From Aureococcus anophagefferens (Eukaryota; Sar; Pelagophyceae; Pelagomonadales; Pelagomonadaceae), in contig NW_008705570.1 in NCBI RefSeq assembly GCF_000186865.1, positions 628,315-692,314 of the forward strand: DNA of 64,000 bases, in the 5' to 3' direction. Made by a program: the position numbers and the translations under genes. The notes under the pieces were generated by a model. That model was not told where the DNA came from, ran no database searches, and saw nothing but the letters and a program-made list of their open reading frames with translations. Positions 748 to 64,000 of this stretch are shown one piece after another. Each line of letters opens with the position of its first letter. Position 1 is the first letter of the stretch.

Positions 748-2376
748 TTACTGCTCCGTCCCCTCGTCCCCCGGCGGCGGCGGCGGCAGGATCGTGCGCA
801 TGCTGTCGAGGGCCCGCCGGTCCGCCTCGACGTCGCGCACGGCGAGCTTCGTGAGCTCGGCCCGCAGCCGCGACGCCTCGCGCCGCTCCTTCGCGACCGC
901 CGACTCCGCGGCCTCCGCCGCGCGCGCGAGGGCCGCGAAGCGCTCCTGGAGCGCGTCGTGGGCCTCCTCCTTGGCGCGGAGCCGGGCCTCGAAGGCGGCG
1001 CAGCGCTTCGTCGACGCCGCGAGGTCCAGCGCGGCCGCGGCGGCGCGGTCGTCGCCCTGCCGCCGCTGCTCCGCGAGCACGCGGCGCGTCGACGCCTCGA
1101 GCGCGGACCGCGCGTCCGCCGCGGCCGCGAGCTGCTCCCGCGTCCGCGCCGCGCCGGCCTCGCGCGCCGCGTCCGCCGCCGCCGCCGCCGCGCGGAGGCC
1201 CTCGTTGCTCAGGCGCCACGCGGCCGCCGCGTCGCGCGCGGCGGCCGCGCGGTCCGACGCCCGCGTCGCGTTCGACGCCGCGGTCGCCGCGCCGTCCGCG
1301 TCCAAGGCCGCCGCGCGGTCCGACGCCCGCATCGCGTCCAGAGCCGCCGCCGCCGCGCCGTCCGCGTCCGAGGCCGCCGCGCGGTCCGAGGCTCGCATCG
1401 CGTCCACGGCCGCGGCGGCCGCGCGCCCCGCGTCCGCGACCGCCGCGCGGTCCGAGGCTCCCGCCGCTCGAAAGGCCGCGGCCGCGGCCGCGTCCGCGCG
1501 CGCGCTTCGGGCCGCGTACGCCCCGTGGGCCTCGGCTTGCGCCCGCGACGCGCGCGCGGCGTACGCGCCCTGGAGCGCGACCCGCTCCGCCGCCGCCTCG
1601 GCGTCGAAGACGCGGAGCGCCGCGCGGGCCGCGTCCGCGTCCGCCGCCGCGGCTTTAAACGCGGCGTACATGGCGCACAGCGCGTCGCCGCTCCCGCCGC
1701 CGCTGTTCGCGCCGCCGCGCGGGCTGTTCGCGCCGCGCCGCGGGCTGCCGCCGCTCGACGTCGGGCTCCCGGCCGACGACCGGGGGCTGCCGAACTGGCG
1801 CGCGGGCCCGGCCGCGCCGGGGCTGCCCGCGGGCGAGCCCGCCGCGGGCGAGCCCGCGGGGCTGCCCCGGGGCGCGGGCCGGCCGCTGCCCCGGGACCGC
1901 GCGCGCGCGTAGAGCGCCCGGAGCTCCGGCTCGAGCGGGTGCTCCCACCTGGGCAGCACAAGAGTCGCTTCAACGTGAGTGTTCCGCGCGCGCGCGTTAC
2001 GGAAAACACATCCACGCTTCGAGACCGTTCCGAGAGATGATCGCTCGTCCAAAAATCAGCCGAAACGAGTGGAAAACGACCGAGATAGAAGTTGGGAATT
2101 TCGCTGCCCTGGCTCCCGCTGCGAGTCCTCGGTGCCGTCGCGCAGGTAGTAGAGGTCGCCCTCGTGCGTCCGGTAGCGGATCCAGCCGCTCGGCACGCGG
2201 AGCGCGGCCCGCAGCCCGATCCAGGCGCAGCCCGGGTCGCCGACCTCCAGCAGCGCGAGCTGCTCCCGGACCATGTCCTCGAGCTCCGCCTCGGTGGTGG
2301 TTTCGAAGTCGCACTCGTCGAGCAGCCGCTGGCAGACGCCGTCGGGGTCCGCGTCGGCGATGGCGCGCAGACCCAT
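748..2376 (-). CDS. CEP164-like WW-domain coiled-coil protein (two exons)
   Basis: Predicted 485-aa protein from exons 2376-2120 and 1948-748, joined by removing the family A introner at 1949-2119. The N-terminal 85 residues contain an acidic helical segment and the start of a WW domain (GWIRYRTHEGDLYYL). The second WW tryptophan and proline (QWEHP) come from exon 2, so the domain exists only in the spliced product. After it follow a Ser/Gly/Pro-rich linker, an Ala-rich 22-residue repeat array and a long coiled coil rich in Arg, Glu and Ala. A WW domain close to the N terminus followed by coiled coil resembles CEP164, a centriole distal-appendage protein, but the similarity outside the WW region is not decisive. 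The start at 2376 is the only upstream ATG in frame before the divergent gene at 2509. It could instead be another WW/coiled-coil scaffold. Confidence 0.72.
1247..1466 (-). repeat. 66-bp tandem repeat inside the WW gene
   Basis: The sequence beginning gcgcggtcc recurs at 1247, 1313, 1379 and 1445, an exact 66-bp period encoding a 22-residue unit with RASDRAAA and DADGAA. The units differ by substitutions but not by length, so the reading frame is kept. Confidence 0.85.
1949..2119 (-). mobile_element. Introner family A copy A1 (spliced intron)
   Basis: 171-nt GC-AG intron read on the minus strand. Upstream duplication GCGGGAGC and downstream GTGGGAGC match at 7 of 8 positions. The donor-side terminus is CAGGGCAGC and the acceptor-side terminus is GCTGCCCAG. 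Removal rebuilds the WW motif in frame (phase 2). Orientation F, meaning the AATTCCCAACTTC segment is first on the sense strand. It is shorter than the roughly 200-nt standard copy. Confidence 0.9.
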
Positions 2377-2508
2377 GGCGATCGCGGCGCGGTGCGCGCG
2401 CGCCGCCGGCGGCCGCGGACGCGGACTGGGCAGCCCTCGACAACGTCGTTCAAGGTGGGCAGCTTCAGAACCTTGCAGAGCCTTGAGGTCAGATTGCAGC
2501 TCAGGGCA

Positions 2509-61636: not shown

Positions 61637-61777
61637 CGCGACCTCTAGGGCCCCCGTCGCGTGCGGGGGCGCCAGTTAGCCGCGGCGCGGCGCGCGGCGC
61701 GGAGCTCGCGCGGGCGGTGCGGCGCGGCGACGCGAGCGTCTTGGGCTCCGCGGCGGCGCCGCCGTCCCGACGGCGCC

Positions 61778-64000
61778 TCAGAACGAGAGCGCGACGGCGA
61801 CGTCCTCGCGCGCGTCCTTGCAGGCGCCCGTCGCGGGGCCCCTTAGGCGGAGCTCCGCGGCGACGACGTCGAAGGCCGCGGTCGGCGTCGGGCCGAGCGC
61901 CGTCTCGTCGCACTCGCCGTTCGAGTGGCAGGCGACGAGCGTGACCGTCGCGGACGGCGGCGCGGCGAGCACCTGGGCGGGACGCGGGCGATTCGACGCC
62001 GCTTCGACGCGGGCGTTCCGCGCGCGCGTTCCGGAACGAGCGTCCGCGCTTCGAGCGCGCTCCGACGGTCGCTCGTCCAGAATCAGCCGAAACGAGTGGA
62101 CACCGGCCGAGAGCGGAGCCCTTGAAGTTGGTCACGTCGCGCCCGCGTCCCGCGCCGGCGTCGCGCGGCGGCGGCGAGGGGCAGGCGCGCGAGGTTCGAC
62201 AGGGGGCTGAGGATCAGCGGCGACGCCGCGAGGCACGGCGACCGGTCGACGAGGACGGCGACCGGCGCGCCCATGTACCCCGCCTGGCCCTCGCGCGGCA
62301 GCGCGGCGGCGGCCAGCGCCTCGGCGCGGTCCGAGAGGTCGGACGCGCCGGACCCCCGGAGGATGAACTCGTCGTCGAGGCGGTCCATGACGACATCCCG
62401 GAAGATCTCCCAGGGCGCGCGCGCGCGCCGGCGGTCGTCCGCCGCGACGAGGTCGACGGTCGGGTCGATGACGCGCGCGAAGGGCCCGCGGCCGTTGAGC
62501 CGCTCGAAGAGCGTCCCCGCGACCTGCGTGGAAATGAAATCACCCGACTTCAATGGTCGCGTAGTTTCGACGCGAGGCTTTCTGCCGTGCTTCGAGAGCT
62601 CGACGAGAGCCATCGATTCGTCCAAAAATCAGCCGAATCGACTTCGATGTGACCGAGCTCGAGAGTTCTGAAGTTTGGCGGGGACCCCCCGAACCGGTGG
62701 TCGATGTCCACACGGCCCGCGACGGCGACGGCGCGGCCCTCCGGCACGGCGTGCTGGATCGCGCGGCCGATGCCCGCGCCGACCTTGAGCCAGGACCGCG
62801 GGTAGACGCCCATGAGCGCGCGCCGCGTGCCGACGATCTGCATCTGCTCGAGCGGGAGCGTCCGCTCGTCGTCGCCTAGGCAGCAAAAGGGTGATTCAAC
62901 GTCGCTTCAATGTGAGTGTTCCGCGCGCGCGCGTTCCGGAAAAAGCATCCACGCTTCGAGACCGTTCCGAGAGATGATCGCTCGTCCAAAAATCAGCCGA
63001 AACGAGTAGAAAACGGCCGAGAAAGGAGCCTTTGAAGTTGGGAATTTCGCTCTCTTTTGCTGCCCCGGTCGTCGCCGGGCCCGCCCGGGAACAGGTTTGG
63101 CCCGAGGTAGGCGCGCCGCGGCAGGGCCCGGCCGCCGACGCTCGGCGCCAGGTAGGCGAACTTGAGGAAGGACATGGCGCCCCGGGCCCCCTGGTCCTTG
63201 CCGTGGAGCATCATCGTCCACGAGAAGCGGTAGCCGCGCGCGGACATGGCGAAGTCGGCGCCGTGGAGGAGGGGCATGCGCAGCGGGACGAGCACCTGGA
63301 GGAGCACGTAGAGGAGCAGGAGGCACCGGAGCGGCCGCGCCGGCCGCGCGGCCGCGGCGGCGCGCGGCTCGCCCGCGGAGAAGCCCGTCGCCGCGCGCGC
63401 GAGCCACGCGTGGAGCGGCGCGTCGCCGCCCGGCCCGCCGACGGGCGCGAAGAGGACGACGGCGCAGACGCAGGCGCCGGGGAACGCGTAGCCGATGCGC
63501 TGGCTCATCGTGAAGCACGTGAAGCCGTGGAACGCGCAGCTCAGCCCCGCTAAGGCCGCGAAGCTCTCGCGGGTCGGCCGGAGGCACAGGAGCGCGGCGG
63601 CCATGGACCCGTCGAGCAGGAGCCCGCCCAACGCGACGGCGGCGAAGAGCCGCGGGCCGAGCGTCGCCTCCATGGCCGCCCAGGGCACGCCGCGGTGCAC
63701 GCCCTGCTCCTCGAAGCCGAGGAAGATGCCCCGGACCAAGGCGCCGGAGACCCAGTCCGGGTGCGTCTTCCAGAGCGACGCGAAGACGTAGACGACGGCG
63801 AGCTGCGCGCGGAGCGCGACGACGGCCGCGCGGCGCCGCGCGGGCGACGCGGCCGCGCCGGGGAACGCGCGCGGCGCGACGCGGCGGCACGCGGCGTCGA
63901 CGGACCAGGCGCCGCCCGCGCCGGAGACGGCCGTGAGGAGGAGGAGCAGGGAGAAGAGGTAGTCGTGGTTCGTGAAGCGCGTCGTCTGCGCGAGCGCCTG
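61778..64000 (-). CDS. Vitamin K-dependent gamma-carboxylase-like (HTTM) membrane protein, 5' partial, four exons seen
   Basis: Exons in view: 64000-63076 (continuing beyond the window), 62875-62724, 62523 to about 62167 and 61972-61778. The first begins in mid-protein with FTNHDYLFSLLLLLTAVSG, then ALRAQLAVVYVFASLWKTHPDWVSG, MSQRIGYAFP and the signature YRFSWTMMLHGKDQGA, matching the HTTM/gamma-carboxylase family (NH.Yl..Ll ... R.Ql.ivYf.Ag..K...dW ... G.rFSW.mml). Spliced exons 2-4 give a soluble tail (FPGGPGDDERTLPLEQMQIVGTR ... ALPREGQAGYMGAPVAVLVDRSP ... VTLVACHSNGECD). The human enzyme carboxylates glutamate residues in the ER; activity here is unproven. Three introners from two families sit within 1.1 kb. 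Convergent with the EngB-type gene. Confidence 0.8.
61973..62166 (-). mobile_element. Introner family A copy A9 (GC-decayed)
   Basis: About 194 nt. Many A/T positions of the family consensus have become G/C (for example gggcgattcgacgccgcttc for gggtgattcaacgtcgcttc), while GCTCGTCCAGAATCAGCCGA and the AG acceptor CCGCCCAG remain. The duplication can no longer be recognised, so the donor (62166, GC) is a guess. Orientation F. Confidence 0.75.
62524..62723 (-). mobile_element. Introner family B copy B7
   Basis: 200-nt GT-AG intron with a perfect GTCGCGGG duplication. Donor-side terminus CCGTGTGGACATC, acceptor CATTTCCACGCAG. Internal orientation R relative to its host. Phase 0; gives EGRAVAVAGTLFERL. 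Confidence 0.93.
62876..63075 (-). mobile_element. Introner family A copy A8
   Basis: 200-nt intron with GC donor. Perfect GCGACGAC duplication. Donor-side terminus CGGGGCAGCAAAAG, acceptor GCTGCCTAG, so the acceptor AG is kept although the preceding C has changed to T. Orientation F, phase 1; gives GGPGDDERTLP. Confidence 0.94.

What the first reader, a model, noticed from the sequence alone, without database searches (positions are those of the whole stretch)
1949..63075. Sixteen intron-forming transposons (introners) all inside coding sequence
Sixteen short elements of two families interrupt ten genes (WW, HECT, sulfotransferase, DUF3431, GH3, PPP phosphatase, ENDOV, DNAJC21, the unknown secreted gene at 58665, EngB and HTTM make eleven hosts if every copy is counted by gene). 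Fifteen restore a continuous reading frame when one 8-bp duplication plus the element is removed, and they use all three intron phases. Fourteen duplications match at 7 or 8 of 8 positions. No copy was seen in the roughly 10 kb of spacer. Spliceable DNA transposons of this kind have been reported for Aureococcus and Micromonas, so the class is known; the density here (about one per 4 kb) suggests a recent burst.
Basis: partly seen in the sequence, partly recalled or inferred. Interest (0 to 1): 0.88.

Follow-up and report, generated by a model that had tools for sequence, protein, structure and literature searches.

The report
Intron-making transposons in Aureococcus genes
Sixteen short jumping DNA elements in this stretch of a marine alga's genome sit inside genes in the orientation and position that would let the cell cut them out of the RNA as introns, a phenomenon already known in this alga but seen here with an unusually clean genome-wide rule.

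Summary
Confirmed. The window (G000:C10:628315-692314; 49-Mb genome) holds 16 copies of two related families: A (~192 bp, 9 copies) and B (~203 bp, 5 copies plus 2 decayed). In 14 of 16 the 8-bp target duplication matches at 7 or 8 positions; 15 of 16 restore the frame when element plus one duplication is removed. Four junctions checked residue by residue against solved structures close without a gap, two inside the motifs GNHE and GNGVLHPRG. The duplication supplies the 5' splice site (GC or GT), the element's last two bases the 3' site (AG). Genome-wide, without annotation, the base that must be G is G in 1166 of 1200 family-A ends; at the opposite end, the control, in 598 of 1489. Host proteins match Aureococcus anophagefferens, where introners are already published, so novelty is low. 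Additions: the genome-wide rule; GC donors in about half; acceptor at opposite ends in different A copies; GC-ward decay; one protein-level empty site. Not supported: a local burst (density p = 0.08). Against exactness: database gene models splice some sites differently. RNA evidence and the mobilising transposase are missing.

The parts
1949..2111 (-). Family A copy (163 bp) in WW-like gene; intron 1949-2119 on the minus strand, GC-AG
   Evidence: TSD 7/8
14923..15113 (-). Family A copy in HECT gene; GT-AG
   Evidence: TSD 7/8
19158..19349 (+). Family A copy in sulfotransferase gene; GC-AG
   Evidence: TSD 7/8
25552..25754 (+).
   Evidence: TSD 8/8; no Pfam match at E 0.001
30929..31119 (+). 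Family A copy in GH3 glycosidase gene; GT-AG
   Evidence: TSD 8/8; junction ungapped after P548 of the query
35589..35780 (-). Family A copy in PPP phosphatase gene, inside the E codon of GNHE; GT-AG
   Evidence: TSD 8/8
36472..36663 (-). Family A copy in the same phosphatase gene; GC-AG
   Evidence: TSD 8/8; downstream flank score 7.8, under the threshold of 8
41894..42084 (+). Family A copy (acceptor at the other end) in ENDOV gene; GA-AG; absent in P0125
   Evidence: TSD 7/8
42434..42623 (+). Family B copy in ENDOV gene, inside GNGVLHPRG; GC-AG
   Evidence: TSD 7/8
49342..49499 (+). Decayed B-like copy in DNAJC21-like gene; GC-AG
   Evidence: TSD 7/8
58925..59100 (+). Decayed B-like copy, ends uncertain, in unknown secreted gene; GC-AG
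   Evidence: TSD 6/8
60029..60231 (+). Family B copy in the same unknown gene; GC-AG
   Evidence: TSD 8/8
61232..61426 (+). Family B copy in EngB-like GTPase gene; GT-AG
   Evidence: TSD 7/8; junction ungapped after R133 of the query
61973..62162 (-). Old, GC-rich family A copy at the end of the HTTM gene; acceptor AG kept, duplication no longer recognisable, donor uncertain
62524..62715 (-). Family B copy in HTTM gene; GT-AG
   Evidence: TSD 8/8
62876..63067 (-). Family A copy in HTTM gene; GC-AG
   Evidence: TSD 8/8

Best explanation
These are introners: short DNA transposons without a transposase, with terminal inverted repeats, that insert with an 8-bp (sometimes 9-10-bp) target duplication and are then removed from the pre-mRNA by the spliceosome. 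The intron runs from the first base of the upstream duplication to the last base of the element. The duplicated exon sequence supplies the donor (GC in about half or slightly more, GT in most others, rarely GA) and the element's end supplies the acceptor AG. Because one duplication copy leaves with the element, the mRNA is restored exactly. Shown from sequence: anatomy, duplication, frame, strand, donor rule. Inferred: actual splicing, DNA-level transposition, a transposase acting in trans (possibly hAT-type), and loss of insertions that cannot be spliced.
For: Repeats, TIRs and TSDs. Frame and strand: 30 of 34 well-delimited copies have both flanks coding in one frame after excision, 0 frameshifted, 4 with a weak flank; 7 of 8 further copies; all 37 have GC/GT (35) or GA (2) and AG on the coding strand, against 8 of 30 GC/GT when the duplication is read from the other strand. 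Ungapped junctions in conserved domains. Genome-wide donor rule: G in 1166 of 1200 ends against 598 of 1489 at the control end; GC/GT in 199 of 200 listed A copies. Empty site for A7 in P0125.
Against: No RNA data. Database models differ: AURANDRAFT_27088 (P0121) uses an internal GT donor in B2, adding 12 residues inside GNGVLHPRG, and keeps part of A7; P0001 and P0002 add two residues at A4. Gozashti et al. 2022 (Results section read) describe an Aureococcus introner that adds 12 bp to the mRNA; whether it belongs to family B is unknown. L053 breaks the donor rule, and of 20 fetched non-G copies 4 had no clear second end. Copy 61973 has no recognisable duplication.
Confidence: 0.94

Rival explanations
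1. The transposase itself prefers targets with GC/GT at one end, so the donor rule reflects target choice and not splicing.
For: The rule is almost without exception.
Against: Target choice cannot know the coding strand: 37 of 37 copies with two coding flanks are in the splice-compatible sense. In family A the acceptor lies at opposite physical ends in 'fwd' and 'rev' copies, and the GC/GT lies opposite it each time. The control end shows only background G (40%).
Confidence: 0.03
2. The introns are real but spliced at internal GT donors, so each insertion adds a few residues to the protein.
For: AURANDRAFT_27088 keeps 12 residues of B2 and part of A7; P0001 and P0002 add two residues at A4. 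Gozashti et al. 2022 report a +12-bp Aureococcus introner.
Against: With internal donors the duplication need not start GC/GT, yet it does in 199 of 200 listed A copies, and 97 of the 100 listed non-G B ends have GC/GT at the other side, background 20%. The added residues would fall inside invariant motifs of ENDOV.
Confidence: 0.07
3. Intron copying through RNA (reverse splicing) and not DNA transposition.
For: Copies sit almost only in splice-compatible sense positions, as reverse splicing would produce.
Against: Local target duplications and terminal inverted repeats are not expected from reverse splicing.
Confidence: 0.03
4. Ordinary MITEs that interrupt genes and are not spliced (pseudogenes).
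For: TIR and TSD anatomy alone would fit.
Against: One-sided strand and donor rule and intact conserved motifs either side.
Confidence: 0.01

Closest known systems
Introners of Aureococcus anophagefferens and Micromonas pusilla (Huff, Zilberman and Roy 2016, Nature; recalled, not read here)
   Same: Recalled: short non-autonomous DNA transposons, one splice site carried by the element and the other co-opted from the duplication. PMC7789003 (passages read) says A. [quoted passage not shown] Host proteins here match A. anophagefferens.
   Different: Published element sequences could not be compared. About half of the donors here are GC, so 'canonical' does not fit all copies.
Introners surveyed by Gozashti et al. 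2022 (PMC9860276; outline, passages and Results section read)
   Same: TSDs, TIRs, enrichment in genes, GC and GA donors reported in some families.
   Different: They report up to 50% GC donors per family; 61 of the first 100 listed family-A copies have GC here, about 51% when both acceptor-side lists are weighted. Their Aureococcus example adds 12 bp to the mRNA; mine restore it exactly by inference.
hAT superfamily MITEs
   Same: 8-bp duplications; A ends begin CAGGG. A 6,488-bp hAT-like element with 16/16 TIR, 8/8 TSD and a 1217-aa frame exists in this genome.
   Different: That element's TIR is CGGGGTTCGACGTAAC, not the introners' TIR; B ends begin CTGTG. No autonomous copy with introner TIRs was found in the few loci examined.
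Pelagomonas calceolata introns of about 210 bp (PMC9481584; passages read)
   Same: Related alga; the authors link the length peak to the introners of A. anophagefferens.
   Different: Sequences not compared.

Membership tests
Introner (intron-generating transposable element) | Many similar sequences, similar up to near the splice boundaries, in unrelated genes | tested here: met
   16 copies in 11 genes of the window, 28 in the random sample
Introner (intron-generating transposable element) | Insertion interrupts coding sequence and excision restores it | tested here: met
   30 of 34 and 7 of 8 in frame; four ungapped junctions
Introner (intron-generating transposable element) | Removed from RNA by splicing | not testable with these tools
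   No RNA reads available; donor and acceptor bases only
Introner (intron-generating transposable element) | Recent gain: absent at the same site in relatives | tested here: met
   Protein level only: P0125 lacks A7; P0122 and P0123 are seamless at A7 and B2; P0004 is seamless at A4. DNA of these was not available, and how P0122, P0123 and P0004 were predicted is unknown
Published introner families of A. anophagefferens | Sequence match to the published elements | not tested
   Huff et al. 2016 is not in the library; species inferred
hAT superfamily | 8-bp target duplication | tested here: met
   a minority of 9-10 bp
hAT superfamily | TIR beginning YARNG (rule recalled) | tested here: inconclusive
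   A: CAGGG fits; B: CTGTG does not, though L014:4381 has CAGTG at its non-acceptor end
hAT superfamily | Shared TIR with an autonomous hAT element of the same genome | tested here: not met
   No introner TIR in the enlarged loci L033 and L034 or the short loci L009-L012; L033 has another TIR. Search not exhaustive

The most novel reading that the evidence does not exclude
Insertion is aimed almost exclusively at exons. If insertions were random and those between genes were kept as neutral, 58-85% of family-A copies should lie in non-coding DNA (for 9-37% non-coding DNA). The donor rule allows only about 3%: 1 of 200 listed copies lacks GC/GT, upper 95% bound 2.8%, divided by the 80% of random sites that lack it. 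Purging of unspliceable insertions cannot alone produce this; a transcription- or chromatin-guided transposase, or rapid loss of unspliced copies, would be needed.
Probability: 0.4. Interest if true: 0.62.

Novelty: already known. Interest (0 to 1): 0.4.

Why it matters
Introners are a leading explanation for mass intron gain. This genome allows a test that needs no annotation and no RNA: the base 8 nt outside one terminal repeat shows, copy by copy, whether the insertion could be spliced. The near-total obedience to that rule turns a qualitative picture into a number and raises the question of why copies that could not be spliced are almost missing. It also suggests a simple origin for the acceptor: one base change (CTG to CAG) at the tip of a terminal repeat, seen at opposite ends in different family-A copies and at both ends in most family-B copies. 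It also warns that gene models preferring GT donors may mis-splice these genes.

Tried and rejected
Autonomous partner: PF05699 gave four places. Two were enlarged. One is a complete hAT-like element with another TIR, 13 matches to its first 140 bases in the genome; PF14291 found only that same locus, below its cut-off. Similarity of A and B to the hAT loci: one 25-base match at E 0.009, the rest weaker; not taken as homology.

Other introner families by TIR plus perfect TSD in the 264 kb and L033: known copies, one 116-bp short B form (L022:330-445), and GC-rich chance pairs.

Single or repeated origin of the two acceptor ends in family A: the tree of 32 copies needs 4 changes (bootstrap 3-5), but one clade is not rejected (p-AU 0.38). 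Left open.

Local burst: density p = 0.08. Strict non-coding test: 0 of 34 copies against 227 of 2500 random points, p = 0.07, not significant; the in-frame coding test gives 30 of 34 against 1812 of 3000, p = 0.0006.

The 34 non-G copies were first taken for unspliced intergenic copies; fetching 20 showed most to be 9-10-bp duplications or 8-bp ones with an extra base beside the repeat.
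Full report
What was checked. The window is part of a 49.05-Mb, 86-contig genome, 73% GC here. Searches seeded from the window found 16 elements in it: family A (consensus 192 bp), 9 copies; family B (203 bp), 5 copies; and 2 decayed B-like copies. A and B share a core of 54 aligned bases at 80% identity but have different ends. In 20 random 10-kb stretches (195 kb after 4.5 kb of N) there were 28 copies, about one per 7 kb, which scales to very roughly 7,000 in the genome. 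The window's one per 4 kb is not clearly denser (p = 0.08).

Anatomy. Ends and duplications were set by a score for TIR, TSD and similarity to the expected end sequence, without using donor bases or coding strand. In the sense orientation a typical family-A copy reads TSD-CAGGGCAG...CTGCCCAG-TSD and a family-B copy TSD-CTGTGTGG...CCACACAG-TSD. In A the second base is the usual mismatch between the two repeats: the end facing downstream has CAG where a perfect inverted repeat would have CTG. B is symmetric in 9 of 12 copies, so either orientation ends in AG. In A, 'rev' copies carry the acceptor at one physical end and 'fwd' copies at the other (12 and 6 of 18). Several small clades of one type are well supported, but the number of origins is unresolved.

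Frame and strand. A codon model trained on long open frames (GC1-3 of 72, 54 and 95%) was used to ask which strand and frame is coding on each side. Of 44 copies, 34 were well delimited (TSD at least 7/8, TIR at least 9/14, score at least 80; 61973 also left out). Of those 34, 30 have both flanks coding in one frame after removal of element plus one TSD, none is frameshifted, and 4 (L013:2570, L021:8738, L026:9765, window 36472) have a weak flank. Random points are coding in frame in 1812 of 3000. Eight further A copies fetched by similarity gave 7 of 8. In all 37 the coding strand is the one on which the element ends AG and the TSD begins GC/GT (35) or GA (2). Read from the other strand, 8 of 30 TSDs begin GC/GT. 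All three phases occur: 6, 11 and 13 of 30 for phases 0, 1 and 2 (frame index converted by me). Of the ten copies left out, six are in frame with GC-AG (L018:8656, L018:9275, L020:2598, window 42434, 49342 and 58925); L019:3322 lies in DNA without coding signal; L022:8858 and L027:9482 could not be judged; 61973 has in-frame donors but no recognisable TSD.

Conserved sequence across junctions. The A4 junction lies between KP and VAV of a GH3 domain, A5 within the E codon of GNHE in a PPP phosphatase, B2 within the L codon of GNGVLHPRG in endonuclease V, and B4 after R133 of the EngB fragment; each is ungapped in the alignment to a solved structure. A2 lies inside a HECT domain matched over its whole profile, and the 49342 and 19158 copies inside matched ZUO1-like and sulfotransferase domains; there I saw match ranges, not residues.

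Genome-wide test without annotation. If the donor is the first base of the upstream TSD, the base 8 nt outside the sense 5' end of every A copy must be G. It is G in 1166 and another base in 34, against 598 G and 891 other at the opposite end. Of the first 100 listed G-first copies, 61 start GC, 37 GT, 1 GA, 1 GG. From the acceptor side, 199 of 200 listed A copies have GC/GT and one has GA. For B, whose two ends look alike, 97 of the 100 listed non-G ends have GC/GT on the other side, and of the 100 listed G ends 93 start GC/GT and the other 7 have it on the other side; some of these ends are the two ends of one copy. Background GC/GT is 20% in coding and other sequence alike. The lists are capped at 100 and in contig order, not randomly drawn. 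I fetched 20 of the 34 non-G copies. By my reading, 14 start GC/GT once a 9-10-bp duplication or an extra base beside the repeat is allowed, L050 probably does, L039, L044, L048 and L052 had no clear second end, and L053 is a true exception.

Species and polymorphism. The GH3 host's best hits are A. anophagefferens proteins, 90% and 93% identical and identical over long stretches; the ENDOV host matches AURANDRAFT_27088. The genome itself is unnamed, so the species is inferred. The AURANDRAFT_27088 model contains translated pieces of A7 and B2, so those insertions exist in that strain and its predicted splice sites differ from mine; P0001 and P0002 likewise add two residues at A4. P0125, an environmental protein nearly identical to the window's ENDOV up to B2, reads into B2 unspliced yet runs straight across the A7 site, so its source appears to lack A7. 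P0122 (75%) and P0123 (60%) are seamless at both sites, and P0004 (96%) at the GH3 site.

Age. Divergence from consensus runs from 3 to 30% in A and from 5 to 41% in B; divergent copies are GC-richer (Spearman 0.66 and 0.86), and copy 61973 has 35 AT-to-GC against 1 GC-to-AT change. This looks like continuing activity with GC-ward decay, not one event.

Literature. Gozashti et al. 2022 (PMC9860276): outline, passages and the whole Results and Discussion section read. PMC7789003 and PMC9481584: passages read. Huff et al. 2016: recalled only, not held. Searches for introners with Aureococcus, autonomous transposase or hAT were seen as listings, some capped; none of the listed titles or abstract beginnings names the transposase of these families. 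Most subscription papers are not in the library.

Verdict. The class is already known in what appears to be this very species, so novelty is low. What remains interesting is the strength of the donor rule and the near absence of copies that could not be spliced.

Noticed in passing
L033:1392-7879 (G000:C6:239891-246378): A 6,488-bp hAT-like element with 16/16 TIR, 8/8 duplication and one 1217-aa frame (zf-C17orf113 over its cut-off; PF05699 over the cut-off, below it); 13 matches to its first 140 bases in the genome.
   Followed up: partly
L010 and L011 (G000:C1:943540, C13:599794): Two loci 98.6% alike over 2.7 kb with a PF05699 match in a 344-aa frame; in the enlarged C1 locus no convincing terminal repeats were found.
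   Followed up: partly
P0121 (AURANDRAFT_27088), P0001, P0002: Database gene models keep or shift introner pieces at A7, B2 and A4, apparently preferring GT donors over GC.
   Followed up: partly
window 61973-62162 and L018:8656, L018:9275, L023:4713: Old copies are strongly GC-shifted (for example 35 AT-to-GC against 1 GC-to-AT), which would hide old introners from similarity searches.
   Followed up: yes
window 1171-1498, 34184-34507, 3409-4061, 54381-54578: Tandem or near-tandem repeats (66-bp, 108-bp, a 279-bp pair 374 bp apart, and 9-bp-spaced repeats), unrelated to the introners.
   Followed up: no
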